A stretch of DNA of 64,000 nt from a virus (IMGVR_UViG_3300025168_013179:33787-97786); one strand, 5' to 3'. Shown: positions 32,488 through 46,162, counted from the stretch's first letter. A program made the numbers and translations. Notes: generated from the letters alone by a model not told the origin.

Positions 32488-32929
32488 ATTCTTTATTTAA
32501 TACATCAGGATTTTGTTGCATAGTTTGTTTAGTAATTAAATCTTTAAGTTTTGTTGTAGACCAACTATGAGCTCTAGACGTATATACGATCTTAGGAGGC
32601 AAATCATCTCCTGTAAACGTTTTACCTATGTAATCTTCTCCAAGAATCCTGATATCTGGTTTAAAATTTACTATTAAGTTGTAAAGCTCTTCTTCAGTTT
32701 GGTATACAAATACCTCATCTACATAAGATACGGCCATTAAAGCTCTATATCTTTCATATAAAGGTATAACCGGTTTATATTTACTAAACCTAGTTAAAGA
32801 CGGGTCTCTTTGTAAAAAAACTATAAAGTGATCACAGTGTTTTTTTGCATCCTCAAAAGTATAAATATACCCTGGGTGAAGAAGGTCAAAATTACCGGCT
32901 GTAAAGCCTACTATTGGTTTTTTACTCAT
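32480..32929 (-). CDS. Cytidylyltransferase-like nucleotidyltransferase (TagD/RfaE type)
   Basis: 149 residues. GFTAGNFDLLHPGY at 8-21 is the N-terminal nucleotide motif; the usual HxGH reads HPGY here. ERYRALMAVSYVDEV is the RYxxVxxxxxVDEV-like segment, and WSTTKLKDLI replaces the ISTTxxxxRI motif. The family activates phospho-sugars or glycerol phosphate with CTP or ATP. Change of the second His may lower or alter activity. Placed next to QueF by a 4-base overlap, but a link to 7-deazaguanine is not evident. Confidence 0.7.
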   Translation of the reverse strand: MSKKPIVGFTAGNFDLLHPGYIYTFEDAKKHCDHFIVFLQRDPSLTRFSKYKPVIPLYERYRALMAVSYVDEVFVYQTEEELYNLIVNFKPDIRILGEDYIGKTFTGDDLPPKIVYTSRAHSWSTTKLKDLITKQTMQQNPDVLNKEYE

Positions 32930-33864
32930 TGCCTTAATGTTTTTGCTAATCTAAATTCCTTTTCTTCAAACATAGCTGGGATAAGCATATTATGAGATGC
33001 TCTAACAGGGTTAATATCTAAACCTCCTCTTCTAGTATATAAACATGCTACCATAAGCTGCTCTGGTTGAAAAGCATCAGTTAAATGCTTGTAAACCATT
33101 TCACAAATTTCTTCGTGGAAGTGACTTACGGTTCTATGTGAAACTATATACTTTGCCAATGAATCTGCTGTAGGTAAATTTTCACCTTTTATCTTAATGT
33201 ATACATCACCCCAATCTGGTTGATTCGTAACTCTACAGTTAGATCTTAAAAGGTTAGATTTTAACCTTAATTCAGGCCATGCTAAATTCTCTTTTTTAGC
33301 TTTATATGATTTTAACTGAGAGGCATCGGATTGAAATGCTGTAAAGTCTATCTCATCTAGATCTACTATATCTCCTAAGTCTTTATAGTTCATAAAAGAT
33401 AAAGGTTTTCCTTCTTCTTCACTAGCATAAAAAGAAACAGTTGTATTAGTTTCAAGTAACTCATCTAAATCTCTCTTTACTCTTGCTTCAATACCGCTAA
33501 TACAGTCTCTAGCATTATCTGCTATACGAGTCATATTAAATGAATTTAAATAAAGTTTTATTGACTTAGATTCAACGTGATATTCACTATTTGAAGGACA
33601 AACTATTTTAAGCATACCTGCTACCGGTTGACCTTTAGTAGTGATAGCTGATACTTCATAACAGTTCCAAGTATCTACTCCTACAAAACTGTCTGAAGTT
33701 AGTCCGTAACCTTCTCTGTTTAAGTATCTTGGTACTTTAACTAATAATTCTGGTGAGTATGTATCTTTATACCCATCACCGCCTACTTTTCCTAAATGTT
33801 TAGAAGCAATATCTACTACTTCTTGATAATTTTTAACGTCTGCATTTAACCCTTTTTCTTCCAT
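32926..33864 (-). CDS. queF: NADPH-dependent 7-cyano-7-deazaguanine reductase (long-form QueF)
   Basis: 312 residues, the two-lobe (YqcD/E. coli-like) form. VESKSIKLYLNSFN at 97-110 is the NADPH and substrate motif. C210 in RSNCRVTNQPDWGD is the catalytic thiol that attacks the nitrile of preQ0. TRRGGLDINPVRA near the C terminus closes the substrate site. It reduces preQ0 to preQ1. Its presence means the phage route goes past preQ0. Most phage deazaguanine clusters stop earlier. It shares an operon with dpdA-like and formyltransferase genes just upstream. Confidence 0.92.
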   Translation of the reverse strand: MEEKGLNADVKNYQEVVDIASKHLGKVGGDGYKDTYSPELLVKVPRYLNREGYGLTSDSFVGVDTWNCYEVSAITTKGQPVAGMLKIVCPSNSEYHVESKSIKLYLNSFNMTRIADNARDCISGIEARVKRDLDELLETNTTVSFYASEEEGKPLSFMNYKDLGDIVDLDEIDFTAFQSDASQLKSYKAKKENLAWPELRLKSNLLRSNCRVTNQPDWGDVYIKIKGENLPTADSLAKYIVSHRTVSHFHEEICEMVYKHLTDAFQPEQLMVACLYTRRGGLDINPVRASHNMLIPAMFEEKEFRLAKTLRQ

Positions 33865-33868
33865 AATT

Positions 33869-34387
33869 TTAATTTATAAATTCTAATATTTGATTCACAC
33901 GCTGTAATGGTGACCCTGTTACAGTAAGGTAGGGTTTTCTTACTCCTTCTAGAAGTAATTTAAATTCGTTATCAATTGATACTCTCCATTCTTCATTAAT
34001 ACTTCTTACTCCATCGTCTACAGAATCAAACTCTATAGGGAAATAAATATAATGAGTATATTCATTCTTAACTCTATTCCAAGTATCTTCTATATAGTTA
34101 TGAGCTTCTTTACTAAGTTTGTCCATGAAAGTAGAATAAACAACAAGATCCATATAACATCTGTCTAATATCATATTACCAGGATTAAGTAAAGCTTCTA
34201 GATGAAATGAACTAATAGCTAACTGAGTCTCAGAAGTTCCTGCTTCGTTAATAGGAAATCCATAAGAACCTACTGTACGAGTAGATTCATTAATAAATTC
34301 GTACTTAGGTAATTTATTTTTAAGTAGTTCATACACAGTAGTCTTCCCTGTACTACTAGCTCCTACTAATGCTATTCTTTTTACCAT
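33869..34387 (-). CDS. P-loop nucleotide kinase/ATPase (AAA_28, NadR-like)
   Basis: 172 residues. Walker A GASSTGKTT at 9-17, NESTRTVGSYG, ILDRCYMDLVVYS (the DR(C/S) segment following the Walker B strand), and a LID-like SINEEWR. This resembles the C-terminal ribosylnicotinamide kinase half of NadR and the PF13521 group. Possible jobs are NR phosphorylation or a deoxynucleotide kinase step. Encoded between queF and the formyltransferase, so a kinase for a modified nucleotide cannot be excluded. Confidence 0.65.
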   Translation of the reverse strand: MVKRIALVGASSTGKTTVYELLKNKLPKYEFINESTRTVGSYGFPINEAGTSETQLAISSFHLEALLNPGNMILDRCYMDLVVYSTFMDKLSKEAHNYIEDTWNRVKNEYTHYIYFPIEFDSVDDGVRSINEEWRVSIDNEFKLLLEGVRKPYLTVTGSPLQRVNQILEFIN

Positions 34388-34402
34388 ATAACCTTTTTAT
34401 TC

Positions 34403-34431
34403 AATATACGAAAAAATTATCGAAGACTCAA
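34403..34431 (-). promoter_or_regulatory. Promoter for the kinase-queF genes
   Basis: Minus strand: TTG at 34431-34429, 20 bases, TATATT at 34408-34403, preceded by TTTTCG. The leader AAAAAGGTTAT lies directly before the ATG at 34387. Confidence 0.65.
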
Positions 34432-34968
34432 ATAATCATTAAGAAAATTAACCCATAAACCTAAGCTTACTCCTTTTAATTTATCATAAACTTCATCAAG
34501 AGTAAAATCATCATTAGGTATACTAGCTTCAGCAATTACTTTACCTTCATCTACTCCTGCTGTTACTTTATGTATAACTGATCCGATCTCTTCATATTCA
34601 CGTTCATAAGCTTTTATTTGAGGGTCTTTACCTTTAAGGTCAGGGTACTTAGTAATTAAACCAGGATGACCATTATACAACTTAACTCCTTCTGTAACAA
34701 AGCCTGGTATAATTCTTAACCAACCATGAAGAGTAACTAAAGCATCAGGAAAATATTGTAAAACATCTAAATAGTTTTCCTTATCTGGGTAGTTTTTAAA
34801 TGTCCAGTAACTTCTTTTTTCTATTCTAGGATCTATAGTTCTTAAGTGTGTTGGCCTCTCATTAGTTATAATTCTATCAGGCCATCTCCCTATACTTTCA
34901 GCTATATCCGCTATTTCCGCTCCAGTTTGACTAAAGAACGCTATCCACCTTATGCCTTCCGTTTGCAT
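34417..34968 (-). CDS. PurN-like formyltransferase, candidate preQ1 N-formylase
   Basis: 183 residues. LVTLHGWLRIIPGFV then N99-x-H101-P (NGHPGLI) and D140 (TAGVDEGKVI) are the catalytic Asn, His and Asp of 10-formyl-THF-dependent GART and Met-tRNA formyltransferases. It overlaps the dpdA-like gene by 38 bases, a strong sign of shared function. Inference: it formylates the aminomethyl group of preQ1, either free or in DNA. From memory, such a base and a formyltransferase called DpdN have been described in phages; I cannot verify that here. Alternatives: purine synthesis or amino-sugar formylation. Confidence 0.65.
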   Translation of the reverse strand: MQTEGIRWIAFFSQTGAEIADIAESIGRWPDRIITNERPTHLRTIDPRIEKRSYWTFKNYPDKENYLDVLQYFPDALVTLHGWLRIIPGFVTEGVKLYNGHPGLITKYPDLKGKDPQIKAYEREYEEIGSVIHKVTAGVDEGKVIAEASIPNDDFTLDEVYDKLKGVSLGLWVNFLNDYLSLR

Positions 34969-35749
34969 ACCATCTAAATTTTTGAATATTATTTTTAACT
35001 TTATCTATGTCAATCTCTTCTAAGTCCATATTAATTAGCTCATGTAACTTTTGAGATTCTTTACTCCATAAACCTTCATCCCCGTACGTAATACCTTTTA
35101 TTCCGTGTACTATTGGATTAGAAGTATCTAGGGAATAAATCCATTTGTAATCTGCATGCTTATAGAATGCAAACTCTTGAGGTAACCCACATCCTAGTAA
35201 GTGATGAGGTTTATTAGTGTTTATCACACCGTCTTTTAATAGATCTCCTAATAATTTAACTCTTCCTAACATCCAACTTACATATTTGTTAGGATGCGGG
35301 ACAGAAACGCTATAATAAGAATAGTCAAAAGATATAGCAATCATATCAACTTCTTCCATATCCATAAATTGATAACATCTTTTTATCTCTTCATAGTCTT
35401 TTCCTTGGACTACTCCGATACTCTTTCCATGTAACCTTGGATAGTCTCTTTTAAAATCTTGACATTGACCTATAGTAAGAGCCATATTCTCTAAAGCATC
35501 TGGGATTATATACCATGAGGCTTTTAGACGGTTAACCCATTGAGCAAATCTTTCCGCTTCAAATGCTTCTTCTAACTCAAATATAGAATTATCTAATATA
35601 ACTTCTCTTCCTTTTTTTATAGCTCTTTCAAAAGTATCTCTATATCTAGGATTTTCTTCTAATAGGTGAACTAATGCATAATCATAATCTGTAAACCTCT
35701 GGACTTCATCAAAGATATCTAAAGGTGCTTCGTGTGCTATTTTAATCAT
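34931..35749 (-). CDS. dpdA: TGT-superfamily DNA base transglycosylase (DpdA-like)
   Basis: 272 residues. Read against tRNA-guanine transglycosylase: ILDNSIFE with D53 stands for the DSGGFQ region, IIPD with D84 for the second base contact, GVVQG at 112-116 for the Q-G base contact, HLLGCGLPQE at 183-192 for the HYLMGVG segment, and SLDTSNP with D208 for the nucleophilic Asp. No zinc-binding CxCxxC is present, as in phage DpdA. Expected reaction: exchange of guanine in DNA for preQ0 or preQ1. Its setting among all preQ1 genes supports DNA modification rather than tRNA. Confidence 0.8.
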   Translation of the reverse strand: MIKIAHEAPLDIFDEVQRFTDYDYALVHLLEENPRYRDTFERAIKKGREVILDNSIFELEEAFEAERFAQWVNRLKASWYIIPDALENMALTIGQCQDFKRDYPRLHGKSIGVVQGKDYEEIKRCYQFMDMEEVDMIAISFDYSYYSVSVPHPNKYVSWMLGRVKLLGDLLKDGVINTNKPHHLLGCGLPQEFAFYKHADYKWIYSLDTSNPIVHGIKGITYGDEGLWSKESQKLHELINMDLEEIDIDKVKNNIQKFRWYANGRHKVDSVL

Positions 35750-35915
35750 CTAATTTTAGGTCGCTTAAGTTTTTTAAAGATTCTGCTAATTTAACATGTA
35801 AATCATCTATAGTTTTAGTTGATTCAAGTACATTATTTATTGCTTTTACAGCTATATCGAAAGGTACATATTGTTTACCTTCTATTTCCACTACGTGATC
35901 GTTTATATTAATCAT
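35742..35915 (-). CDS. Short hypothetical upstream of dpdA
   Basis: 57 residues, MININDHVVEIEGKQYVPF then a helical region ending NLSDLKLDD. Start overlaps the MazG-like stop (ATGA), and the last 8 bases overlap the dpdA-like start, so translation coupling is near certain. The first part resembles a small beta hairpin. No family recognised. Confidence 0.65.
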   Translation of the reverse strand: MININDHVVEIEGKQYVPFDIAVKAINNVLESTKTIDDLHVKLAESLKNLSDLKLDD

Positions 35916-36454
35916 ATATTATTTATTTCTTGATTAGTAAAGAACTGAGATAAATCAGGTCTATAGTAATTTACGCTTTTCATTACTTTTCTATCTCTCG
36001 TTCTATAGACAATAAACCGTCCTTCATTAAGTTTTTCAAAATGACAGGCCTCACCTTGTTCCTTACTTCGTTTGCTGACGGTAAGTAGGGCCTCTTCTTC
36101 AGTTTTACAAGCTTTAGACATATTGCTTCCTTGTACTTCTTGATATGCTGGCCATATCTTATCCTTAAGGCCATGTAACATAGTACCGTTCCCAAGGGAA
36201 ACATAAGTAATGTCGCACAAAGCATCCAGAACTTCCACAATGTCGCCCCGTTCGCAAGCCTCTCTATACTCTTCAAGTTCTTCGAGTATGAAGTCGTAAA
36301 CAAATTGCCATTCTTTTTTTTCTGGGATTGTTGGTTCATAATTATTAGGTTTACCAAAGGTTGCGTTAAACTCTTCTACCTCGCTAACAAATGGTACATT
36401 GTTAACCCATGTAGGTAGTTCTTCTTCTTCAAATAATTTTAATTGTTTAGTCAT
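35912..36454 (-). CDS. MazG/PRA-PH-like nucleotide pyrophosphohydrolase
   Basis: I prefer the ATG at 36454 (180 residues, MTKQLKLFEE), which leaves an 8-base overlap with the gene before; a Met 24 bases upstream is also possible. YDFILEELEEYREACERGDIVEVLDALCDI has the paired EExxE and ExxD metal motifs of all-alpha NTP pyrophosphohydrolases, followed by IWPAYQEVQGSNMSK. It hydrolyses NTP or dNTP to NMP and pyrophosphate. In a base-modification island it could deplete a competing nucleotide; this is inference. Confidence 0.75.
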   Translation of the reverse strand: MTKQLKLFEEEELPTWVNNVPFVSEVEEFNATFGKPNNYEPTIPEKKEWQFVYDFILEELEEYREACERGDIVEVLDALCDITYVSLGNGTMLHGLKDKIWPAYQEVQGSNMSKACKTEEEALLTVSKRSKEQGEACHFEKLNEGRFIVYRTRDRKVMKSVNYYRPDLSQFFTNQEINNI

Positions 36455-36845
36455 AATCTTCTGTTCTTTCCCAGCCATCTGGAGGTAATGGCATATCTAA
36501 GGGTATTCTATCGTAATCGTCTTCCATTCTAACGATATCGTCTTCTCCAAAATAAGTACCTGTTTGTACTTCTATAAATCTTACTTCTTTCTTAGTTTCA
36601 TTCCAAGCTCTATGCATAGATCCTCTAGGTATTTTTATAGATTCGCCATACTTTCTAAATACTTTTTCGTCATCTAAAATAATAGTAAGTTCTCCTCTGG
36701 TAATAATCCATATTTCTGCTCTATGAATATGGTATTGATAAGATAATCTCTGTCCAGGTTTAACTACTATTTCCTTTACCTTACAGCGTTTACTATCTTT
36801 AAGAACTTCGTATTGACCCCAAGGTCTGATGTCTACGTTACTCAT
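36447..36845 (-). CDS. Cupin, mannose-6-phosphate isomerase type II (ManC C-terminal-like)
   Basis: 132 residues. RPWGQYEVLKDS, VKPGQRLSYQYHIHRAEIWII with the metal-binding Q/H/H/E set, ESIKIPRGSMHR, and IEVQTGTYFGEDDIVRMEDDYDR are the complete PF01050 cupin signature. In bacteria this domain interconverts mannose and fructose 6-phosphates and is usually fused to GDP-mannose pyrophosphorylase; here it stands alone. It would feed mannose-derived sugars to the glycan genes. Confidence 0.85.
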   Translation of the reverse strand: MSNVDIRPWGQYEVLKDSKRCKVKEIVVKPGQRLSYQYHIHRAEIWIITRGELTIILDDEKVFRKYGESIKIPRGSMHRAWNETKKEVRFIEVQTGTYFGEDDIVRMEDDYDRIPLDMPLPPDGWERTEDYD

Positions 36846-37638
36846 ATACTGAATTATATAGTTTATATAGCTCTTCGGCTATTAGTTTATGCCCTATGTC
36901 AGAAGGGTGAAGTTTTCCTTCATGTATAGTTTCATGTAAATCTTCTCTCTCAAATAATTTTTTATCATCAAATTGATTTAAATAACTCCAAATACTCTGT
37001 TCTTTATATTTCCAGTATTTATTTTTATCGATAAATTCTGTTTTATCATATACATCGTTACTAATAAAAGTATCGAAGGCATCTATAAAGATATGATTAA
37101 TTTTATAAAGATCAAACATATACTGTAAAAAATATACTAAGTTCTGGCTATAATAGTCAAAATGTATATTGTAGTCAAAGTAATTAGTGAAGAACTTTTT
37201 CCTATAGTTGAGAACAGATTGCTTTACTGAATCGTTACTCTCAGATAAATGGTGATATTCATTTTTTTCATGGTAAGCCAGTTCGTTTAATCCAAACGAT
37301 AACGCATTCATTCCTATTTTAGATCTACTTTCAAAATAACCAGGAAAGAATTCCGGTGTATTTCTTAAAGGAGAAGTAAAACAACAAATAACTAAGTCAC
37401 CTTTAGAAAACTTACCTTCACTTATATGATTAACAACTAGATCTAAAAGATAATTTGGATTAGACCCTAACTTTCCGAAATTATTAAATTCACAACCAAG
37501 TAACTTAGCTAGTTGACCAGTAAATGATAAACCTTCTCTGTACTTTCTTAATTCCGGTGTGCCATTAAGTTTTCTTTCAACTTCGGTATTTACACCGTTG
37601 CCGGCTACAAAACTACAACCATAACTATGTACCTTCAT
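36838..37638 (-). CDS. SGNH-hydrolase-like protein, copy 2
   Basis: 266 residues. SYGCSFVAGNG at 5-15 replaces the GDS motif (G-C-S), with S9 as the likely nucleophile. GKLGSNPNYLLD is block II-like, LHPSDIGHKL gives the block V His. The stretch FIDAFDTF, DKNKYWKYKEQSIW parallels the copy at 29930-30820. GDS to GCS is an unusual change. Likely hydrolysis or transfer of acyl groups on sugars. Confidence 0.6.
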   Translation of the reverse strand: MKVHSYGCSFVAGNGVNTEVERKLNGTPELRKYREGLSFTGQLAKLLGCEFNNFGKLGSNPNYLLDLVVNHISEGKFSKGDLVICCFTSPLRNTPEFFPGYFESRSKIGMNALSFGLNELAYHEKNEYHHLSESNDSVKQSVLNYRKKFFTNYFDYNIHFDYYSQNLVYFLQYMFDLYKINHIFIDAFDTFISNDVYDKTEFIDKNKYWKYKEQSIWSYLNQFDDKKLFEREDLHETIHEGKLHPSDIGHKLIAEELYKLYNSVYE

Positions 37639-37640
37639 AC

Positions 37641-38354
37641 TTAATGTTTACATATTGAAGCTAATTCGATATTTTTATAAAACTCTGCTTTAGCTGAGTC
37701 TTCATCTAAGAATGCTCCTGTTAATTTAGCTGTTTGCATTGAAGCTCCTTGATGTTTGACTCCTCTACAACTAACACAGTTATGAGTAGCTGAAATCATC
37801 ACAGCGACGCCTAAATTACCTTCACATATCTTGTTTACTGCATTATGTATTGCTACAGTAAGTTGTTCTTGTATAGCACCTCTTCTACCGAATTGCTCTA
37901 CGATTCTATTAAGCTTTGATAACCCAACTACTTTACCCTCAGCTGAAGCAATATATGCTATGCTTACATTACCTCCTATAGTTTGATGATGATGGGAACA
38001 CATTGAATGAACTGGTATGTTACTTTCTTGTACTATTCCATCATATCCATCAGAAGGAAAAGCTGTGATCTTATCTAAAGGTTCATATCTTCCTTTCCAT
38101 AAATCATTAACGTAAGCTTTTGCTACTCTCCTAGGAGTATCAGATGAATTTGGATCTCTTCTCCATTCACAGCCTAATTCATCTAAAAATAATCCAAATT
38201 TATGAGCTGCTTTATTAATAATGTCTTCTTTTTCAAATTCAGTTAGTCTTGCTTCTTCACCTTCTATTCTCTGTTTATTATATAGTTGAGTAGATATACC
38301 ATTTGCATACCCAGGCTCTACTAACTCAGTACCTTCTATAAATTTTTTTGCCAT
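37641..38354 (-). CDS. folE: GTP cyclohydrolase I
   Basis: 237 residues. DTPRRVAKAYVNDLW, SNIPVHSMCSHHHQTIGG with C119 and H122, SKLNRIVEQFGRRGAIQEQLT and ISATHNCVSCRGV with C193 make up the zinc site and active site of FolE. It opens GTP to 7,8-dihydroneopterin triphosphate, the first step toward preQ0 and also toward folate. The phage probably uses it for QueD supply. A promoter lies 44 bases upstream, with a small hairpin in the leader. Confidence 0.95.
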   Translation of the reverse strand: MAKKFIEGTELVEPGYANGISTQLYNKQRIEGEEARLTEFEKEDIINKAAHKFGLFLDELGCEWRRDPNSSDTPRRVAKAYVNDLWKGRYEPLDKITAFPSDGYDGIVQESNIPVHSMCSHHHQTIGGNVSIAYIASAEGKVVGLSKLNRIVEQFGRRGAIQEQLTVAIHNAVNKICEGNLGVAVMISATHNCVSCRGVKHQGASMQTAKLTGAFLDEDSAKAEFYKNIELASICKH

Positions 38355-38397: not shown

Positions 38398-38426
38398 AAT
38401 ATAAGAATAATATTTTAATTATCCAA
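38398..38426 (-). promoter_or_regulatory. Promoter for folE and following genes
   Basis: Minus strand: TTG at 38426-38424, 20 bases, TATATT at 38403-38398, preceded by ATTCT. Downstream ATGAG and CTCAT (about 38374-38393) could pair as a leader stem before the folE start at 38354. Confidence 0.6.
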
Positions 38427-38837
38427 ATAATCTTGTTTAGTATTACTATCATTTCTCTCCCATGGAAATACTAACCATCTATCATCTTCTATTTTTTCTC
38501 CGTAGTATTCTGGGATAGTTTCTGATATGTATCTCATACATAAAGTAGCTGTAATAAATCTAGGAGCATAGTCTTTCATAGTGACTCCTGAATCACATAT
38601 ATCGTCTACTAGTAATATATCTTCGTTTTTGAATCTAAGATCATGTCGACCATACTTCTTAGCTTCGTCGAATGGAATGTAGGCTACACCTAATTTATGA
38701 CTTAACATGATAGCAGGTATTAGGCCACCTCTAGGAATACCTGAGATATATCTTAATTTTTTATCCTTTAATCTTTCTGCTAATTCTTCTATTTGATCGT
38801 CGACCCATTTCCAGGACATAAAAACCTTTTCTTTCAT
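38415..38837 (-). CDS. Phosphoribosyltransferase (xanthine/hypoxanthine type)
   Basis: 140 residues from 38837, or 134 from the Met at 38819, which is preceded by AAAAGG and looks like the better start. ISGIPRGGLIPAIMLSHKLG is the PRTase N-terminal loop, and ILLVDDICDSGVTMKDY the PRPP motif. The short hood suits Gpt-like enzymes that salvage guanine, xanthine or hypoxanthine. It may recover guanine released when the DpdA-like enzyme swaps bases (inference). Confidence 0.75.
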   Translation of the reverse strand: MKEKVFMSWKWVDDQIEELAERLKDKKLRYISGIPRGGLIPAIMLSHKLGVAYIPFDEAKKYGRHDLRFKNEDILLVDDICDSGVTMKDYAPRFITATLCMRYISETIPEYYGEKIEDDRWLVFPWERNDSNTKQDYLDN

Positions 38838-38979: not shown

Positions 38980-39096
38980 TTAGGTTGTAGTCATAGTCCA
39001 CATCGGATGCAGTTGATAAGCAACAGTATTATTACCCGAAGGTACTACTTCTTCCAACTTTTCTTTAATTAGTGTAATAAATAAGTCTTTAGTCAT
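38980..39096 (-). CDS. Short hypothetical
   Basis: 38 residues, MTKDLFITLIKEKLEEVVPS and a polar tail. It starts inside the last codons of the secreted nuclease gene (8-base overlap) and ends 4 bases before the next small gene. The compact spacing is the main support. Confidence 0.4.
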   Translation of the reverse strand: MTKDLFITLIKEKLEEVVPSGNNTVAYQLHPMWTMTTT

Positions 39097-39697
39097 TACA
39101 ATTTACTTCGTATTCTTCCCATTCTTTAATAGGATCTATATTAGGAAAATAAAAACACTTTGTAGTATTATCATCTAAAAATTTGATATGCTTTTCGAAA
39201 CCTGAAGGTAGTGTGGCTCCGTTAGCCATAACTGAATCTGAAAATATAACGTTAATGGTAATTTCTAAATCTTGTTCATCATCCCATTTACGTTCTTCGG
39301 CTTCTAATAATCTCCATGCCCCTCTATTAAGTTTATCTTTCTGCAATGCGCAGTTAAGGAATGAAAATGTCTGTTTTAAGTTTTCGTTTGAATCTGAGAA
39401 TGTAGCAGCAGGTGCTAAATGACCTTTGTCATAAGGGTAACCTTTGTAATCGTTATTATCAGAAGTGTAGTAATCTTTTTCTGTTCTGAAATTCATAGAA
39501 CCCCTATCTACGTTTTTTGGTCTATCAGTAGATAAATATGTTAGGGTAATTGGTTGTTGTTTACTCTCTGAGTAAAAGACAGTGAAAATAGGTGTCTCAA
39601 CGGTAAGGTCTTCACAACATTCTCTTTTTTCTTGGGATAATCCTTCATTGGAGCTGCCCATTAGTGCTAGTATTACTAGTAATCTAAGTGTTTTCAT
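39089..39697 (-). CDS. Exported DNA/RNA non-specific endonuclease (NUC family)
   Basis: 202 residues. Signal peptide MKTLRLLVILALMGSSNEGLSQ. YDKGHLAPAA at 89-98 is the D-R/K-G-H motif with the general base H93. LNCALQKDKLNRGAWRLLE at 114-132 provides the metal-binding Asn and the downstream W-x3-E helix. The family cuts DNA and RNA without sequence preference. An exported nuclease in a phage could digest DNA in the periplasm or outside, for nucleotide supply or against incoming phages. Two cysteines (KRECCED) could form a disulphide. Confidence 0.85.
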   Translation of the reverse strand: MKTLRLLVILALMGSSNEGLSQEKRECCEDLTVETPIFTVFYSESKQQPITLTYLSTDRPKNVDRGSMNFRTEKDYYTSDNNDYKGYPYDKGHLAPAATFSDSNENLKQTFSFLNCALQKDKLNRGAWRLLEAEERKWDDEQDLEITINVIFSDSVMANGATLPSGFEKHIKFLDDNTTKCFYFPNIDPIKEWEEYEVNCND

Positions 39698-39947
39698 AAT
39701 TTAATCCGAAAAATTCGTAATTTTTCTTTACATATTTGTTAGTGCCCTCTTGTTCAATAGCTTCTTCTTCTGAGTCATAGATTGCTTCTACCGGGCATTC
39801 ATAGATGCAAGCTCCGCAGTCAATGCACGTATCAGGATTAATGTACATTGATTCTTCCGCTTCGAGAATACAATCCTCTATTGGACAAACCAGTATACAT
39901 GCACCATCCTTTGTGTCAATGCATTTACTGCCAATGATATGGCTCAT
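39684..39947 (-). CDS. Seven-iron-type ferredoxin
   Basis: 87 residues. Cysteines at 9, 17, 21 and 26, then 41, 44, 47 and 51 with C-P pairs match the [3Fe-4S]/[4Fe-4S] ferredoxins of the Azotobacter FdI type (C8, C16, C20, C24, C39, C42, C45, C49). The C-terminal acidic part is short. It is encoded two genes downstream of the radical-SAM enzyme QueE and may be its electron donor, since host flavodoxin may not be suitable (inference). Confidence 0.88.
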   Translation of the reverse strand: MSHIIGSKCIDTKDGACILVCPIEDCILEAEESMYINPDTCIDCGACIYECPVEAIYDSEEEAIEQEGTNKYVKKNYEFFGLNYENT

Positions 39948-40156: not shown

Positions 40157-40171
40157 ACTTAATTGTTTATA

Positions 40172-40963
40172 TTATACTTCTCTTTGATCTTCAAATGCTA
40201 TAATGTGCGGTCTCCAGGTCATTCTATACCCGTTATCCCTAACCCAGTCGAATAGTATTGGGTATGATTTATATAATGCCGCTCTTGAGTCCCCTGCTGG
40301 CATAAACCAGACTTTATCTTTAGGAGCATCAAGAAGGGATATACATTCCATAATTTCCTTTAATGAATTGTTGTCTTTACCGTCCCAAACAGGTTTGAGG
40401 TGGTAATCTGAATGATATTTAATACTTTTCTTAATAGCCTCATAGTTTAATCTAAACCTATTATGCGTTTTAATCATCATCTCTGCTCTCCTGCCCTCTA
40501 ATTTCTGTCCATTAGGTAAAGTAGCTCCATCTTGAGGAACTGAATTACTGAACTTAGGGCTAATACTTAGTAGATTAATAGGGTAATCAGTTTCTAAGTA
40601 ATGAGAACCTTCTGTCTCGATAGTTATAAATATGTCTCTTTCTTTAGCAAAGTGAGTTAATTCGTTAACTAATTTAGGATGCATAGTCGGTGAACCTCCA
40701 GTTAACATCATTTCTGATATTTGAGGATTATCGTCATACATTTTTACTATGTCGTTAAAAGACCATTTGCCTTTTTCCGGATGAATACTTGTATACCAAC
40801 TATCACACCACCCTCCTTCTCCAAAAAAACATCTATGAGTACAGCCAGTAGTTCTAATTACAACTGTAGGGTACCCTGCTCTGGAACCTTCTGACTGTAC
40901 TGCTGTATAAATCTCTACTATCGGTAGATTTTTATTATAATCTTCAATTCGACCCAGGGACAT
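40172..40963 (-). CDS. queE: 7-carboxy-7-deazaguanine synthase (radical SAM)
   Basis: 263 residues. AVQSEGSRAGYPTVVIRTTGC leads to the cluster cysteines C41, C45 and C53: C-x3-C-x7-C instead of the common C-x3-C-x2-C, so five residues are added in the loop. MMLTGGSPTMHP is the SAM GGE-like motif (GGS here). ETEGSHY and SPKFSNS follow the family. It contracts the ring of 6-carboxy-tetrahydropterin to CDG, the precursor of preQ0. It overlaps queD by 20 bases. Confidence 0.9.
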   Translation of the reverse strand: MSLGRIEDYNKNLPIVEIYTAVQSEGSRAGYPTVVIRTTGCTHRCFFGEGGWCDSWYTSIHPEKGKWSFNDIVKMYDDNPQISEMMLTGGSPTMHPKLVNELTHFAKERDIFITIETEGSHYLETDYPINLLSISPKFSNSVPQDGATLPNGQKLEGRRAEMMIKTHNRFRLNYEAIKKSIKYHSDYHLKPVWDGKDNNSLKEIMECISLLDAPKDKVWFMPAGDSRAALYKSYPILFDWVRDNGYRMTWRPHIIAFEDQREV

Positions 40964-41456
40964 ATATGGCTGCGTTTTTTCCGTGTTCTCTAAATTCTAC
41001 TTTTGCAATTTTAACTCTTCCTTTTGTTTCCTTAAGCACAAATTTATTTACCTTATTATAAACAAACTCTGCGAATCTTTCTGCTCCTACAGCATCTATA
41101 ACTCTAACTTGAGCTACTCCTACTTCTCCCATTTTTAAAAAAGAATCTTTAAAAGGATCATCATTAGCTACTATAAAGGTATGATCGAACATATAATCAA
41201 ACCAATCTTTAGGAGACTTACCTCCTATTTTAGTCTTTGCTCTTTTCATTCCGCCAAAATCCCATACCCAGTTTCTTTCGTCTAAATCTCCTTCAAACCA
41301 TAATTTAAAAGATATACCGTACCCATGTAAAAATCTACAATGAGTACCATCTGCTTTCCACTGTCTAAATACTGTAGAAAATCCATCAAAAACCTTAGTA
41401 GACAAAAATTTAGGTTTTTGGATTGCTTTTTTTGATAATTTACTATGATATACCAT
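40944..41456 (-). CDS. queD: 6-carboxy-5,6,7,8-tetrahydropterin synthase
   Basis: 170 residues. ADGTHCRFLHGYGISFKLWFEG holds the catalytic C40 and H44. The first zinc His, normally in an F-x-A-x-H segment, is not clear in FSTVFRQWKADG, so that ligand may differ. The WDFGGMKR and FDHTFIV (D91-H92) segments match the T-fold active site, and VEFREHGKNAAIY is the final strand with the conserved Glu. It converts dihydroneopterin triphosphate to 6-carboxy-tetrahydropterin. 170 residues is longer than the 120-140 usual. Confidence 0.85.
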   Translation of the reverse strand: MVYHSKLSKKAIQKPKFLSTKVFDGFSTVFRQWKADGTHCRFLHGYGISFKLWFEGDLDERNWVWDFGGMKRAKTKIGGKSPKDWFDYMFDHTFIVANDDPFKDSFLKMGEVGVAQVRVIDAVGAERFAEFVYNKVNKFVLKETKGRVKIAKVEFREHGKNAAIYVPGSN

Positions 41457-41773: not shown

Positions 41774-41858
41774 TTTCCGTGTTTTTAAAGTGGTGCTGTG
41801 ACACTATTGTCTGTTATGTTTAAGTAAGATACGATAAATATTTATTATATCCAAATAT

Positions 41859-41969
41859 TTAAAAGTTTTTATACGTAAAAGGGTCTCTTTTTTTAAGTTC
41901 TTTTAATTTTTCTTCAAACTCTTTATCTAATTTTTCTTTTAATTTTTTTTCTTTTTCTTCTTCTGTCAT
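41859..41969 (-). CDS. Short highly charged helical protein
   Basis: 36 residues, MTEEEKEKKLKEKLDKEFEE and onwards to RDPFTYKNF, nearly all Lys and Glu. The ATG overlaps the carbamoyltransferase TGA (ATGA). The strict coupling argues for translation; the composition suggests a single long helix. The 85 bases downstream hold a GATATAATAAATATTTATCG tract and no gene. Confidence 0.4.
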   Translation of the reverse strand: MTEEEKEKKLKEKLDKEFEEKLKELKKRDPFTYKNF

Positions 41970-43657
41970 TTTTTTCGTTTTATTAAATAGTTATTTATTA
42001 CTAGAATATCTATTTCAGAGCTTATAAATCTTTCTATAGCCTGTAACGGTGTTCTAGTAATAGTCTGATCTTTAAGGTTAAATGAAGTATTAAGTAAAAC
42101 TTCATGTCCGGTTACTTTACCTACTTCTTTAAGTAGCTTGTAATAGTTCGGATTAGATTGATTTGTAACTGTTTGTACTCTCGATGAACCGTCTATATGA
42201 GTAGCAGCATTAAATAAGTTACTCTTATTTTTAGCTACTATATTCATATAAGGGACTGGTTCTTTAATATCAAAATATTTCTTAGCATTGTCTAAGGTAA
42301 CAGAAGGTGCAAAAGGTCTAAAACCTTCTCTTTTTTTAATAATCTTATTTAACCTTTTCCTCATATTGGCATACTTTGGAGAAGCTATAATTGACCTATT
42401 ACCTAATGCTCTAGCTCCAAATTCCATTCTCTCTCTAAATAATGCAATAATTTTCTCTTCATTAATAGCATTAGCTAAGTGAACTAATAGCTCATCATTA
42501 TGATGTCTTTTAAAATTAATGAAGTTACTAAAATAACTTAATACCGGTATAATTTCGCTATCTTTATAAGAATCACCTAAATAGGGATTATTATTGTTTC
42601 TACGTTTACCTTTCCAGCTGACTACTGAACTATTGTTAATATAGCTATGTAAACAAGCACCTATAGCAGAACCAGCATCAGAAGGAGCGAAAGGTATATG
42701 TACTGATTTAAAGTATTCGTATGCTTTTATATTAGCTACACCGTTATACGCACATCCTCCTCCTAAGCAGATATTATCACTTTTAGTTAATTTTTTTGCA
42801 GTTTTAAGTAACTTACTAAATTGGAATTCATAAACTTTCTGTAATGCTGCCGCTAAGTCTTTATGGTCCTGTAACATAGGCTCCTCAGGAAATTTCGGGG
42901 CAAGTTCTAGTAACTGACATAGTTCTAAATTAAACATTATCTTATCTGAATATTCCCACGTGAAAAAGGTTTGATCAATTTCAAATTTACTATCAGTATT
43001 ATTAAAAATAGAATTTAACTTATCAAAGTACCTATCAGGGTTCCCAAACGGAGCTAATCCCATAATTTTATACTCTCCCTCGTTTGGTTTAAATCCTAAA
43101 AAAGCTGTAATAGCGGAATATAACATTCCTAGTGAATTAGGAAAATCAATCGATAGTTTTTTTGTAATCTTACCGTTAACTGCCTTAGATATAGTAATAG
43201 TTTCCCATTCTCCAACACCGTCAACAGTTAATATAGCTGCATGTTTATAAGGGCTAGTAAAATATGAAAAAGCACCGTGAGATAAGTGATGGTCTATGTA
43301 TTTAATCTTACCGGTATAGTTAAAATAACAGTATAGTAGAATTTTTGGTGATAATAGGTAGTACTTAGTAAGGAATTTTAGTTTATTAAATAAGGTTCTA
43401 AAAGGTTTTTTAGCAAAAGTTTTAACAACCCTATCCTTCTTAGTCTTAGGATTTTCATACCAGCATACTTCGTCTATATCGTTTATATTCTGGATGTTAG
43501 CTTTTTTTAATAACCATTGTATGGAGCAAACAGGAAATGAACTGTCATGTTTAATTTCAGTAAATCTTTCCTCCTCTATTGCACTAATTACTTTACCGTC
43601 TTTTACTAAGCAAGCTGCTGCATCATGATAAAAAGCGGAGATTCCTAATTGTAGCAT
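41966..43657 (-). CDS. Carbamoyltransferase (NodU/CmcH family)
   Basis: 563 residues. N-terminal ASKHA-like domain: LGISAFYHDAAACLV, SAIEEERFT, DHHLSHGAFSYFTSPY, TVDGVGEW and GGGCAYNGVANI. C-terminal YrdC-like part: MEFGARALGNRSIIASP and the LLNTSFNLKDQTI segment. It transfers carbamoyl from carbamoyl phosphate via ATP to a hydroxyl or amino group. In phages these enzymes are seen in glycan or nucleobase modification clusters; either is possible here. Strictly, only the family is shown. Confidence 0.9.
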   Translation of the reverse strand: MLQLGISAFYHDAAACLVKDGKVISAIEEERFTEIKHDSSFPVCSIQWLLKKANIQNINDIDEVCWYENPKTKKDRVVKTFAKKPFRTLFNKLKFLTKYYLLSPKILLYCYFNYTGKIKYIDHHLSHGAFSYFTSPYKHAAILTVDGVGEWETITISKAVNGKITKKLSIDFPNSLGMLYSAITAFLGFKPNEGEYKIMGLAPFGNPDRYFDKLNSIFNNTDSKFEIDQTFFTWEYSDKIMFNLELCQLLELAPKFPEEPMLQDHKDLAAALQKVYEFQFSKLLKTAKKLTKSDNICLGGGCAYNGVANIKAYEYFKSVHIPFAPSDAGSAIGACLHSYINNSSVVSWKGKRRNNNNPYLGDSYKDSEIIPVLSYFSNFINFKRHHNDELLVHLANAINEEKIIALFRERMEFGARALGNRSIIASPKYANMRKRLNKIIKKREGFRPFAPSVTLDNAKKYFDIKEPVPYMNIVAKNKSNLFNAATHIDGSSRVQTVTNQSNPNYYKLLKEVGKVTGHEVLLNTSFNLKDQTITRTPLQAIERFISSEIDILVINNYLIKRKK

Positions 43658-43666
43658 AGTTAACGT

Positions 43667-44020
43667 TTATAACTTACCGTCTTTTCTCATTTTTGCTCTA
43701 ATTTTTGTAGCAGAAACTTCGTCAATTTCAGTAGGCGGTACATGCTCTATAACGTCATAGCCTACTCCTCTTCCATAGTTAACAGATTCTATGTCCGGTA
43801 TTATACTAATAAATATCCTTCCTTCTACAATTAGACCGTGTAGTTCCTTTTGAATATTCATCATTACTTCATGTGCTGTCCAAGGTTGGTTATCACTTGG
43901 TTCTACATCACGAATTGCTATCCATACGTTTTTACCTTGATTTAATCTTTGATCGATTAACCAACGGTGACCGGCATGCCATGGTTGCCATCTTCCAATA
44001 AACATTGAATACTTTTTCAT
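43667..44020 (-). CDS. Nucleotidyltransferase (HxGH family, NadM-like)
   Basis: 117 residues. MFIGRWQPWHAGHRWLI has the first motif with H15-A-G-H18; VSATKIRAKM is the ISTTxxR-like second motif. Size fits a minimal adenylyl- or cytidylyltransferase of the nicotinamide-nucleotide type. Encoded in a tight block with a HAD phosphatase and an APS-kinase-like protein. Confidence 0.75.
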   Translation of the reverse strand: MKKYSMFIGRWQPWHAGHRWLIDQRLNQGKNVWIAIRDVEPSDNQPWTAHEVMMNIQKELHGLIVEGRIFISIIPDIESVNYGRGVGYDVIEHVPPTEIDEVSATKIRAKMRKDGKL

Positions 44021-44361
44021 ATACCTTCATCTCTTATTAAATTATAACAAATTGCTCTATCACCCGGTTCTTTTGGAGATAAATCATTAATTAAGTATCT
44101 TGGACCTCTTTCTATTCCCATAATTAATCTATCGTAAGGTATATTACCTTGAATGAGCTCGAATTGAGTCTGTGCTCTCATAAATTTAGTATCCGGTCGT
44201 GCTGTTGTAAGAATAATCATATGACCTTCATCTCTTGCTTGTTGTAAAAATTGTTTTGTAGACTTTATTACAACTGCCGGATTATCGAGATATGTATCAA
44301 ATTCTCTGTACTTAAAAATAGTACCGTCTATATCTACAAAGTATGTTTTCTTTTTAACCAT
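44017..44361 (-). CDS. HAD-superfamily phosphatase
   Basis: 114 residues. YFVDIDGTIFKY gives the DxDGT nucleophile motif at 9-13; MIILTTARPD is motif II (ST), and INDLSPKEPGD holds the late Asp. It dephosphorylates a small phosphate ester. The ATGA overlaps on both sides suggest work in series with the nucleotidyltransferase and kinase. Confidence 0.75.
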   Translation of the reverse strand: MVKKKTYFVDIDGTIFKYREFDTYLDNPAVVIKSTKQFLQQARDEGHMIILTTARPDTKFMRAQTQFELIQGNIPYDRLIMGIERGPRYLINDLSPKEPGDRAICYNLIRDEGI

Positions 44362-44800
44362 AAATGTAATTTGATATTTTTAATAAAGAATCCTCTGGTG
44401 AATCTAAAGTAGTATCTATATCTAAAAAGTTATCGACAGGTGCTATATAATCATCAGCCCAGTATTTTTCTCGTCCTCTTTTTCCATTTTCAGGGTTATA
44501 ATGTACGTGTATTTCTTTTAATTGCCAGGATAATTTATCTTTAAACTCTTCTCGTTGGTAAATATATGGAGATACTAGAGAAACTATCACGTCCTTTCCT
44601 TTATTATGTAAGTAATGTGCAATTTTTTGTGCTGCATCTATATTTGCTAATCTTCCTTTCTCTGAATAATCCTTATTAGCAAATAACTCTCTCATTTCAT
44701 CTCCATCTATACGGAACGCATGTGGCATCCATTTATCCTTGAGAGAGTCAGCTAATGTAGTTTTTCCAGAATGTGGTTGACCTGTAAACCAGAATATCAT
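44354..44800 (-). CDS. cysC: Adenylylsulfate (APS) kinase-like protein
   Basis: 148 residues. IFWFTGQPHSGKTTLADSL has the P-loop, FRIDGDEMRELFANKDYSEKGRLANID is the CysC-type DGD and SxxxR region, and GKDVIVSLVSPYIYQRE is the strand with the SxxxxY/RE motif. It should phosphorylate APS to PAPS (144-200 residues usual). PAPS is the donor for the sulfotransferase-like protein at 21625-22242. Related kinases with other substrates exist. Confidence 0.7.
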   Translation of the reverse strand: MIFWFTGQPHSGKTTLADSLKDKWMPHAFRIDGDEMRELFANKDYSEKGRLANIDAAQKIAHYLHNKGKDVIVSLVSPYIYQREEFKDKLSWQLKEIHVHYNPENGKRGREKYWADDYIAPVDNFLDIDTTLDSPEDSLLKISNYIYG

Positions 44801-45270
44801 TACCCTATATGTTTTTTAACTTTTGAATTACCAAATAGTAAGTATAAACTCCAAACCAAAGAAGGTATGAATAATACTAAGTAAGTAGTGTAATCTCCAT
44901 TAGGTAATGTTCCAGCTGATTCATTTAATTGTTCCATTCCACTATTAGGATTAAATCCTTCTAATATAAAAGAGTATATAAATGTTACTGCTACTAACCA
45001 TCCTGCTTTTCCAGGAAAAAATGCATTAATTCTTTTATATGTTGATGCTAATGAAAACCAAATCATTGGAATTAAAAATAAACATCCTAGCATTATAAGT
45101 AATCCTGCAATAATTAGATCTGATTCTATTAGAGCAACTCCTATACCTAGGAATATTCCAATTGGGATAAAAAATAATACGGTTGCTAATCCTCTTAAAA
45201 GGTAATCTGTTCCATTAGTGGTATTTTTAAATTGAAAGTACTTACCAAACTTTTCTTTTAAATATTTCAT
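44800..45270 (-). CDS. DUF805-like membrane protein
   Basis: 156 residues with four hydrophobic spans (about 27-50, 51-75, 88-102 and 128-146) and a conserved-looking RGLATVLFFIPIG and ASTYKRINAFFPGKAGW. The KRI..F pattern before a span recalls the DUF805 family. Function unknown. First gene after the tRNA, transcribed away from it. Confidence 0.55.
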   Translation of the reverse strand: MKYLKEKFGKYFQFKNTTNGTDYLLRGLATVLFFIPIGIFLGIGVALIESDLIIAGLLIMLGCLFLIPMIWFSLASTYKRINAFFPGKAGWLVAVTFIYSFILEGFNPNSGMEQLNESAGTLPNGDYTTYLVLFIPSLVWSLYLLFGNSKVKKHIG

Positions 45271-45289
45271 CTTTTGTTTTTAAAATTAG

Positions 45290-45362
45290 AGCCTCTAGTA
45301 GGAGTCGAACCTACAGACTTCTCTTTACAAGTGAGATGCTTTTCCTATTAAGCTTCAGAGGC
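45290..45362 (-). tRNA. tRNA-Thr (anticodon UGU)
   Basis: 73 bases on the minus strand: acceptor stem GCCTCTG/TAGAGGC (last pair G-U), D stem GCTT/AAGC with GG in an 8-base loop, anticodon stem TCTCA/AGAGA (the innermost A-A is unpaired), loop CTTGTAA with anticodon TGT, T stem GTAGG/CCTAC with loop TTCGACT. Discriminator U. CCA is not encoded. Reads ACA and perhaps other ACN codons, which suit an AT-rich genome. The anticodon has no G34, so it is not a queuosine tRNA. Confidence 0.85.
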
Positions 45363-45370
45363 ATTCCGTA

Positions 45371-46162
45371 TTACGCGTATTCAGCTAAAAGCTTTTCAAC
45401 ATGAGTTTTCGCAACTTCATAATTAACTGGTCCACTTTCGTCTTCGTACTGTACAGGATCATCCGCACCCAATTTAATGAACGCTTCGATTCGTTCCACA
45501 GATGAAGCGGACTTGTAATCACTATTACCGCTAGGGTAAGGCTTATAAGAAGTGTTAGTCCTACTATAAACGCTATTAAAATCAAGGCCAAGTTCTCTAC
45601 AGAGCTTTTGACCATCTTGTAAAATTCCATACTTGTCAGTTTCTAAATAAGGTGTAAAATAATCTACTTTATCTGCTTCCCAATTACCTAGTCTAAAGGC
45701 GTTATCGTCAGCATCTCTAAACTCTTGTCTGCAATCAGGATATACTGCATGGTCTCCAGCATGGATTCCTAATGCGATATCTGTATTATTTCCATTAGAC
45801 ATTGCCTCTGAAAGTGCAACTGCCTGGACCAAAGAAGCAAATATTTTGTTTCTATTAGGTACTACAGTAGCTTTCATATTATCCTCTTCGTAATGACCTT
45901 CCGGTACATCGTCTCCACCTTCTGTTAAGGCTGAGTTTAGAAGATTAACTAATCCGTCTAATTTAATTACTTGAAATTTAACGTTCTTATCATTATCTTT
46001 TAAGTAGCTTATTAGTTCTTGTGCTCTCTCAAGCTCTACTCTATGCTTTTGACCGTAATCAAAAGATATTGCAGTTACATTGTCATACTCTGATAAACAT
46101 CTGAGTAGTAAGGTTGAGGAGTCCATCCCTCCGCTTAGACTAATTACAACATTTTTTGCCAT
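45371..46162 (-). CDS. queC: 7-cyano-7-deazaguanine (preQ0) synthase, zinc cysteines lost
   Basis: 263 residues. PP-loop SLSGGMDSSTLLL at 8-20, SFDYGQKHRVELE at 33-45, and VVPNRNKIFASL at 100-111 are clear QueC motifs. In typical QueC a C-terminal WSCY...CGxCxxC cluster binds zinc. Here residues 199-224 read NTSYKPYP...DYKSASSVER: Ser replaces Cys at three of the four positions and Asp or Ser at the other. The rest of that block (SVERIEAFIKLGADDP) is intact. It converts CDG to preQ0 with ATP and ammonia. Zinc-independent folding, or altered activity, is implied. Confidence 0.9.
   Translation of the reverse strand: MAKNVVISLSGGMDSSTLLLRCLSEYDNVTAISFDYGQKHRVELERAQELISYLKDNDKNVKFQVIKLDGLVNLLNSALTEGGDDVPEGHYEEDNMKATVVPNRNKIFASLVQAVALSEAMSNGNNTDIALGIHAGDHAVYPDCRQEFRDADDNAFRLGNWEADKVDYFTPYLETDKYGILQDGQKLCRELGLDFNSVYSRTNTSYKPYPSGNSDYKSASSVERIEAFIKLGADDPVQYEDESGPVNYEVAKTHVEKLLAEYA

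What the first reader, a model, noticed from the sequence alone, without database searches (positions are those of the whole stretch)
32926..46162. Complete GTP-to-preQ1 pathway plus DpdA-like enzyme: probable 7-deazaguanine DNA modification
Seen: FolE, QueD, QueE, QueC and QueF homologues with their main motifs, plus a TGT-superfamily protein with aligned D53, D84, GVVQG, HLLGCG and D208. Known: these steps make preQ1 from GTP, and phage DpdA proteins swap guanine in DNA for 7-deazaguanines, protecting from restriction. Inference: this phage carries preQ1 or a derivative in its DNA. A full set including QueF is rarer than sets that stop at preQ0.
Basis: partly seen in the sequence, partly recalled or inferred. 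Interest (0 to 1): 0.88.

Follow-up and report, generated by a model that had tools for sequence, protein, structure and literature searches.

The report
Phage cassette replacing guanine with formyl-preQ1
This uncultured phage, probably a virus of marine Flavobacteria-like bacteria, carries genes to make an altered guanine (preQ1, probably with a formyl group added) and put it into its own DNA; a kinase gene nearly always found beside the base-swapping enzyme hints that the altered building block may be made before the DNA is copied, not after.

Summary
FolE, QueD, QueE, QueC and QueF are real by Pfam/PHROG profiles. The 272-residue protein is a TGT-fold enzyme: its AlphaFold model's best PDB matches are TGT and the DNA preQ0 insertase DpdA. 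It belongs to the small DpdA family of Campylobacter phage CP220, whose dG is reported 100% replaced.

The isolate Flavobacterium phage immuto_2-6A has the same gene order, so the locus is a new member of a known kind. The predicted end product is N-formyl-preQ1 rather than preQ1; I recall a published fdPreQ1 and a formyltransferase DpdN (paper not held).

Two points appear new. The kinase sits by DpdA in 129 of 138 non-redundant loci but in 0 of 15 DpdA1/DpdA2 loci, and unrelated P-loop kinases replace it in Bacillus phages and Cellulophaga phiST. This suggests synthesis as a nucleotide before replication, an idea once proposed for Campylobacter phages; reviews treat DpdA as acting on DNA. 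The formyltransferase slot instead holds acetyltransferases in some phages, predicting undescribed N-acyl-preQ1 bases. No chemistry was measured.

The parts
32926..33864 (-). QueF, preQ0 nitrile reductase (to preQ1), 312 aa, two-domain type
   Evidence: Pfam QueF_N 1e-28 and QueF 2e-17; 3bp1 V. cholerae QueF E 7.5e-45 with SNC..QPDW, FHE, RRGGLDINP kept
33869..34387 (-). P-loop nucleoside/nucleotide kinase (AAA_28; NadR / deoxynucleoside kinase / thymidylate kinase fold), 172 aa; inferred to phosphorylate the modified deoxynucleotide
   Evidence: Pfam AAA_28 2.5e-16; AlphaFold pLDDT 84.6, nearest PDB folds NadR kinase, dNK, TMK, YorR; next to DpdA in 129 of 138 loci
34417..34968 (-). PurN-like formyltransferase, 183 aa; inferred to N-formylate the aminomethyl group of preQ1 (DpdN-like)
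   Evidence: Pfam Formyl_trans_N 5e-10; E. coli GAR transformylase 1e-8 over the catalytic half; N-x-HP and D-x-G kept in 72 of 72 relatives; overlaps dpdA by 38 bases
34931..35749 (-). small DpdA (CP220/DpdA3-type), guanine transglycosylase, 272 aa, TIM barrel
   Evidence: PHROG 19058 9e-50
35742..35915 (-). 57-aa ORF of unknown function between NTP-PPase and dpdA, kept in some relatives
35912..36478 (-). all-alpha NTP pyrophosphohydrolase (PRA-PH / MazG-like superfamily); inferred dGTP to dGMP by analogy with MazZ
   Evidence: Pfam PRA-PH 1.7e-10, PHROG 671 1.7e-29; beside dpdA in 77 of 82 first-set loci
37641..38354 (-). FolE, GTP cyclohydrolase I
   Evidence: Pfam 4.5e-42
38415..38837 (-). 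xanthine/guanine phosphoribosyltransferase-like protein; inferred salvage of released guanine
   Evidence: NCBIfam PRK09177 2.9e-15, below cut-off; Pfam Pribosyltran; in 58 of 82 loci
39089..39697 (-). DNA/RNA non-specific endonuclease with a signal-peptide-like start; frequent passenger, membership uncertain
   Evidence: Pfam Endonuclease_NS 2.9e-21; in 34 of 149 loci
39684..39947 (-). ferredoxin (4Fe-4S), possible electron donor for QueE (inference only)
   Evidence: Pfam Fer4_10 7e-11; in 21 of 82 loci
40172..40963 (-). QueE, 7-carboxy-7-deazaguanine synthase
   Evidence: PHROG 2076 3.5e-54, TIGR03365 1.7e-16
40944..41456 (-). QueD, 6-carboxytetrahydropterin synthase
   Evidence: Pfam PTPS 1e-12, PHROG 2389 1.4e-40
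45371..46162 (-). QueC, preQ0 synthase (variant without the zinc cysteines)
   Evidence: Pfam QueC 2e-40, TIGR00364 1.4e-39, just under cut-off
27041..29365 (-). family A DNA polymerase downstream of the cassette; association with the modification is only positional
   Evidence: 69% identical to the annotated DNA polymerase family A of immuto_2-6A; in 64 of 82 loci

Best explanation
The operon makes DNA in which guanine is replaced, perhaps completely, by a 7-deazaguanine. FolE, QueD, QueE and QueC make preQ0 from GTP and QueF reduces it to preQ1 (steps inferred from homology). The small DpdA (TGT fold) exchanges guanine for the 7-deaza base on a 2'-deoxyribose. A PurN-like formyltransferase adds a formyl group to the amine, so the end base is most likely 7-(formylamino)methyl-7-deazaguanine. 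Because a nucleoside/nucleotide kinase is nearly always encoded beside this type of DpdA, I think it slightly more likely than not that the exchange is on a free nucleotide: an NTP pyrophosphohydrolase gives dGMP, DpdA swaps the base, the kinase and host enzymes make the triphosphate, the polymerase uses it, and a phosphoribosyltransferase recycles the freed guanine. The modified base would block restriction enzymes. Shown here: gene identities, fold, conserved residues, gene neighbourhoods. Inferred: every reaction, the formyl product, the nucleotide-level step, the extent of replacement.
For: Enzyme identities. DpdA fold and invariant Asp residues. Same order QueD-QueE-PRT-FolE-NTPPase-DpdA-formyltransferase-kinase-QueF-PolA in immuto_2-6A and dozens of environmental contigs. 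CP220 DpdA is the same family (40% identity, PHROG 19058), and 100% of dG is reported replaced in CP220 and CPt10 (PMC8306585), against about 1.7 to 32% in DpdA1 phages (PMC6884629). Nucleotide-level part: AAA_28 kinase within 4 genes downstream in 129/138 non-redundant loci versus 0/15 DpdA1/2 loci; a different P-loop kinase touches dpdA in Bacillus BSP7 and Weizmannia Youna2 and a third (AAA_18, 9e-7) in Cellulophaga phiST, which I looked up only after the structure search named it; kinase fused to a GNAT acetyltransferase in L008/L012; the nearest folds act on free nucleosides or nucleotides; an NTP pyrophosphohydrolase beside it, as MazZ gives dGMP in the Z-genome pathway (PMC8342488).
Against: No chemistry. 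All known TGT/DpdA substrates are polynucleotides, and the literature treats DpdA as acting on DNA. Some contigs with this DpdA show no kinase nearby (L303, L304, L315). Profile-profile comparison of this DpdA with DpdA1 is not significant by sequence alone. Tests meant to show loss of DNA binding (net charge, zinc motif) did not separate the DpdA types. Kinase type does not strictly follow the acyl gene. The loci are related by descent, so the 129/138 figure is not 138 independent events.
Confidence: 0.5

Rival explanations
1. Same pathway and same end base, but DpdA swaps guanine in finished DNA, the formyltransferase acts on DNA-bound dPreQ1 or on free preQ1, and the kinase is an accessory (for example a dNMP kinase supplying replication).
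For: This is the accepted mode for DpdA and TGT (PMC12783734, PMC12707154); deleting dpdA in CAjan abolishes modification, and expressing 9g DpdA with Gat-QueC modifies plasmid DNA in E. coli (PMC6884629). As I recall it, Cui et al. 2023 concluded post-replication insertion also for DpdA3.
Against: Gives no reason why a nucleoside/nucleotide kinase sits beside this DpdA type in nearly all loci and beside no sampled DpdA1/2, nor why three unrelated P-loop kinases do so; complete replacement is harder to reach by exchange on DNA.
Confidence: 0.4
2. The DNA carries plain dPreQ1; the formyltransferase does something else (for example purine synthesis).
For: QueF is intact and many relatives have DpdA-kinase-QueF without a formyltransferase (46 loci of pattern 'kin QueF').
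Against: The formyltransferase lies inside the DpdA-QueF block here and in about half of the loci, is only distantly like PurN (39.5 bits against a 150-bit cut-off), and its slot holds other amine acyltransferases in sister phages.
Confidence: 0.12
3. The kinase recycles the guanine released by the exchange (guanine to GMP by the phosphoribosyltransferase, then GMP/dGMP kinase), whatever the level of the exchange.
For: A xanthine/guanine phosphoribosyltransferase-like gene is in 58 of 82 loci.
Against: In the second clade the kinase stays beside DpdA with no phosphoribosyltransferase among the neighbours shown; a kinase-acetyltransferase fusion exists.
Confidence: 0.12
4. The kinase phosphorylates the base in DNA, as the 5-hydroxymethyl-dU DNA kinases of hypermodified-thymine phages do.
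For: P-loop kinases of that kind are known (my own knowledge).
Against: preQ1, preQ0 and 7-amido-7-deazaguanine have no hydroxyl to phosphorylate; the fold is nearest to small-molecule nucleoside and nucleotide kinases.
Confidence: 0.04
5. The genes boost queuosine in host tRNA, and DNA is not modified.
For: FolE, QueD, QueE, QueC and QueF are the tRNA queuosine route as well.
Against: No canonical TGT (PF01702) in the record; a CP220-family DpdA is present and the CP220 genome is fully modified.
Confidence: 0.03

Closest known systems
Flavobacterium phage vB_FspM_immuto_2-6A 7-deazaguanine cassette (MW353175, genus Immutovirus)
   Same: Same gene order from QueD to PolA including DpdA, formyltransferase, kinase and QueF; DpdA 69%, QueF 62%, formyltransferase 49%, kinase 73% identical.
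   Different: Window has extra genes inserted (cupin, SGNH hydrolase, endonuclease, ferredoxin) and QueC on the other side of a carbamoyltransferase cassette; different phage genome.
DpdA3 / DpdN / fdPreQ1 system (Cui et al. 2023, NAR gkad657; recalled from its abstract, not held here)
   Same: Small DpdA plus a predicted dPreQ1 formyltransferase.
   Different: I recall no kinase and no acetyltransferase variants in that description; insertion was taken as post-replicative.
Campylobacter phage CP220 (Firehammervirus) dADG system
   Same: Same DpdA family (40% identity) with an AAA_28 kinase directly downstream.
   Different: Reported base is dADG; no formyltransferase or QueF beside it; an HD-domain/AAA protein upstream.
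Enterobacteria phage 9g / CAjan DpdA1 systems
   Same: FolE, QueD, QueE, QueC and a TGT-fold DpdA.
   Different: Longer DpdA (306-317 aa), no kinase neighbour, partial replacement (about 32% of G in CAjan).
Z-genome cluster datZ-mazZ-purZ of cyanophage S-2L
   Same: Logic of a base replaced through the nucleotide pool, with a MazG-like dGTP diphosphohydrolase (PMC8342488).
   Different: Different base and different key enzyme; only an analogy.

Membership tests
TGT/DpdA superfamily | TIM-barrel TGT fold | tested here: met
   AlphaFold pLDDT 86.6; best PDB matches TGT 6rkt and DpdA 7ui4
TGT/DpdA superfamily | Catalytic and base-binding Asp residues | tested here: met
   D53, D84, D208 invariant in 25 relatives down to 23% identity; that these align with the catalytic Asp of TGT is inferred from order and fold
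TGT/DpdA superfamily | Significant sequence-profile match to TGT or DpdA1 | tested here: not met
   No Pfam TGT match; hhalign against DpdA1 not significant
TGT/DpdA superfamily | Exchanges guanine for a 7-deazaguanine in DNA | not testable with these tools
   needs an enzyme assay or LC-MS/MS
DpdA3 (small DpdA of CP220 type) | Same sequence family as the CP220 protein | tested here: met
   PHROG 19058 9e-50 for the window, 1.5e-181 for CP220; 40% identity over 94%. That this family equals published DpdA3 is recalled, not tested
DpdA3 (small DpdA of CP220 type) | Complete replacement of dG | not testable with these tools
   reported for CP220 and CPt10 (PMC8306585); unknown for this phage
dPreQ1 formyltransferase (DpdN) | Formyl_trans_N domain with the N-x-H...D triad, beside DpdA and QueF | tested here: met
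dPreQ1 formyltransferase (DpdN) | Formylates preQ1/dPreQ1; 7-(formylamino)methyl base in DNA | not testable with these tools
QueF nitrile reductase (not QueF-L amidotransferase) | Two-domain QueF with catalytic Cys and Asp and the Glu of FHE | tested here: met
QueC preQ0 synthase | SGGxDS loop and C(x)8CxxCxxC zinc motif (PMC13329287) | tested here: not met
   SGGMDS kept, zinc cysteines absent in the whole lineage; the profile match is still strong, so function is likely but the classical definition is not fully met
MazZ-like dGTP diphosphohydrolase | dGTP specificity | not testable with these tools
   only the superfamily (PRA-PH/MazG-like) is shown; no PDB sequence match

The most novel reading that the evidence does not exclude
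Small DpdA enzymes act on free guanine deoxynucleotide instead of DNA: with an NTP pyrophosphohydrolase, a dedicated kinase and an exchangeable acyltransferase they build an N-acyl-preQ1 deoxynucleotide (formyl here; acetyl or other acyl groups in sister phages) that the polymerase incorporates, giving complete G replacement before replication. This would be the first transglycosylase of the TGT family known to work at the nucleotide level and would add several unreported DNA bases.
Probability: 0.45. Interest if true: 0.85.

Novelty: new member of a known kind. Interest (0 to 1): 0.6.

Why it matters
The window adds an environmental member to the 7-deazaguanine DNA-modifying phages and narrows its base to N-formyl-preQ1. 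More important is what the comparison brought out: a kinase gene tied to the small DpdA family in many phages, with unrelated kinases taking its place in two other lineages. That makes a question that had been closed (is 7-deazaguanine always put in after replication?) testable again in isolates such as immuto_2-6A and phiST. The exchangeable slot (formyltransferase, GNAT acetyltransferases, FkbH-type HAD-GNAT) predicts N-acyl-preQ1 DNA bases nobody has reported, as far as I could find, and gives the contigs in which to look.

Tried and rejected
Net charge and CxCxxC zinc motif as signs that the small DpdA lost nucleic-acid binding: no difference from DpdA1/2. Kinase type following the acyl gene: in the first clade four fully placed loci without the formyltransferase (L008, L012, L077, L198; three independent swaps) also have a foreign kinase (28-34% against 65-84% identity), but both genes could have been exchanged as one block, a label count on trees shows no preference for the kinase tree (5, 5 and 6 changes on the DpdA, kinase and QueF trees), and the L008 kinase is nearest to kinases of formyltransferase loci L274/L317; so this is weak. 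DNA polymerase adjacency as a special sign: DpdA1 phages have it too. Sequence-only homology to TGT: not detected. BSP7 DpdA as a query in viral contigs found nothing. PADLOC: only a weak QueC match. The 336-aa protein in the slot of L198 looked like an amidoligase to the eye, but Pfam and PHROGs gave nothing. The decisive paper (Cui et al. 2023) and the 2024 review were not held.
Full report
Setting. The window is the last 64 kb of a 97.8 kb IMG/VR virus record. Genes of the finding are all on the minus strand. The source and host are not stated; relatives are mainly environmental contigs and the closest isolate infects Flavobacterium.

Profiles identify FolE, QueD, QueE, QueC and QueF. QueF is the two-domain type with all catalytic residues of the V. 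cholerae enzyme. Some details differ from textbook enzymes: the QueC lineage has lost the zinc cysteines, QueD has HGY instead of HGH, and QueE has an unusual cysteine spacing; all are shared by its relatives, so they are features of the lineage and not damage.

The TGT-like protein. Sequence libraries do not recognise it, but it is 69% identical to a protein annotated DpdA in Flavobacterium phage immuto_2-6A and 40% to a protein of Campylobacter phage CP220. In an alignment down to 23% identity D53, D84, H183-G186 and D208 never change. The AlphaFold model is a good TIM barrel (pLDDT 86.6, pTM 0.86) whose two best matches in the PDB are TGT and the DNA preQ0 insertase DpdA; viral matches include Cellulophaga phage phiST (TM 0.82) and annotated queuine transglycosylases. 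It is therefore a member of the TGT/DpdA fold family by structure, although profile-profile comparison by sequence alone is not significant.

Overlapping the end of dpdA by 38 bases is a formyltransferase gene (Formyl_trans_N, 5e-10), and between it and queF a P-loop kinase gene (AAA_28, 2.5e-16). The formyltransferase aligns to GAR transformylase over its catalytic half, and the N-x-H and D residues are kept in all 72 relatives checked. With QueF making a free amine on preQ1, the simplest reading is N-formylation. From memory, Cui et al. 2023 reported 7-(formylamino)methyl-7-deazaguanine in phage DNA and predicted a formyltransferase, DpdN; that paper was not held, so this is a lead and not a test.

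Neighbourhoods. In 82 loci found from the window DpdA or its phage hits (80 contigs plus two isolates) the order QueD-QueE-phosphoribosyltransferase-FolE-NTPPase-DpdA-formyltransferase-kinase-QueF-PolA recurs, and immuto_2-6A has it too. A wider set, reached with an alignment led by CP220, shows a second clade in which DpdA-kinase-QueF often forms a three-gene island between genes on the other strand. Among 138 non-redundant loci with enough flank, the kinase is within four genes downstream of DpdA in 129 and QueF in 117. In 15 non-redundant DpdA1 and DpdA2 loci (9g, CAjan, NP1, VpKK5, MS1, phiSM, nt-1 relatives and others) the kinase is never within four genes, nor is any small protein with a Walker A motif. 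Fisher's test gives 6e-15, but the loci are related and the figure should not be read as a probability.

Independent kinases. Bacillus phage BSP7 and Weizmannia phage Youna2 have distant small DpdAs with a different P-loop kinase (PHROG 761 thymidylate kinase, 1e-15 for BSP7) overlapping the start of dpdA. Cellulophaga phage phiST, examined only after the structure search named it, has QueD-QueE-FolE-MazG-115 aa-P-loop protein (AAA_18, 9e-7)-DpdA. Three kinase families beside one DpdA type argue for a functional need. The kinase model resembles NadR nicotinamide riboside kinase, deoxynucleoside kinases and thymidylate kinases, that is, enzymes of free nucleosides and nucleotides.

The acyl slot. 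Between DpdA and QueF, where the window has the formyltransferase, sister phages carry a GNAT domain fused to the kinase (L008, L012), a free GNAT protein (L262, L297, L309), an FkbH-type HAD-GNAT protein plus a glyoxalase-family protein (L077, L068), an unknown protein with a weak GNAT match beside the kinase (L198), or nothing. GNAT and formyltransferase enzymes commonly acylate amines, which fits preQ1 as substrate. I predict N-acetyl-preQ1 and perhaps other N-acyl-preQ1 bases in those phages; I know of no report of them.

Mechanism. The accepted view is that DpdA works on finished DNA. For Campylobacter phages a modified dGTP used by the polymerase had been proposed in 2019, before a DpdA was recognised in them (PMC6884629). 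CP220 and CPt10, which carry this DpdA and the kinase, are reported with 100% of dG replaced (PMC8306585), while DpdA1 phages reach about 1.7% (Dp-1) to 32% (CAjan). The combination of an NTP pyrophosphohydrolase, DpdA, acyltransferase, kinase and guanine phosphoribosyltransferase resembles in logic the Z-genome route, where MazZ makes dGMP from dGTP for PurZ. I judge the nucleotide-level route and exchange on DNA at about even odds, leaning to the former, and the general conclusion (7-deazaguanine in DNA, probably formylated) likely, at about 0.8.

What did not work is listed separately; most notably, tests for loss of DNA binding and for kinase specificity following the acyl group were inconclusive.

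Verdict. The finding is real and belongs to a known kind of system; the window itself is a new member close to the immuto_2-6A cassette. The specialist interest lies in the kinase association and the exchangeable acyl slot.

Noticed in passing
L008 10331-11284; L012 6123-7076: The AAA_28 kinase is fused to a C-terminal GNAT acetyltransferase domain where other phages have the formyltransferase; predicts acetylated preQ1 in DNA.
   Followed up: partly
L262 7804-8343; L297 7801-8340; L309 7801-8379: Free-standing GNAT acetyltransferase between DpdA and the kinase.
   Followed up: partly
L077 6918-8812; L068 5528-7419: FkbH-type HAD-GNAT protein and a glyoxalase-family protein in the formyltransferase slot, with a divergent kinase; in L077 also a divergent QueF (36%).
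   Followed up: partly
L198 8045-10012: 336-aa protein without Pfam or PHROG match, a kinase and a weak GNAT match between DpdA and QueF; another acyl variant is possible.
   Followed up: partly
window 39089-39697; L011 11848-12417; L027 11878-12240: Non-specific endonucleases (Endonuclease_NS in 34 of 149, SNase in 18 of 149 DpdA loci, none in the control loci) sit in the cassette, in some phages between kinase and QueF; they may spare fully modified phage DNA.
   Followed up: partly
window 45371-46162: QueC and its relatives lack the zinc cysteine motif (TSYKP...SDYKSASSVER) yet are conserved; the role of the zinc site in QueC could be tested with them.
   Followed up: partly
window 41966-44800: NodU-type carbamoyltransferase with a cytidylyltransferase-like protein, a HAD phosphatase and an APS-kinase-like protein inserted between QueD and QueC; seen in part in some relatives, function unknown.
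   Followed up: no
window 24497-26463 and 26529-26942: Phage-encoded GroEL/GroES-like genes (GroEL/GroES also in immuto_2-6A) and what looks like a small heat-shock protein near the cassette.
   Followed up: no
L002 7862-8893: In CP220 the gene before dpdA joins an HD phosphohydrolase domain to a P-loop kinase domain; it could supply dGMP or dG like DatZ-type enzymes.
   Followed up: no
L025 1638-2285; L080 9553-10266; L306 7842-8645: GIY-YIG or NUMOD3 homing-endonuclease-like genes are inserted right after dpdA in several phages.
   Followed up: no
L305 2612-4648: DpdA, kinase and QueC directly adjacent with no QueF; probably a preQ0-DNA phage that still keeps the kinase.
   Followed up: no
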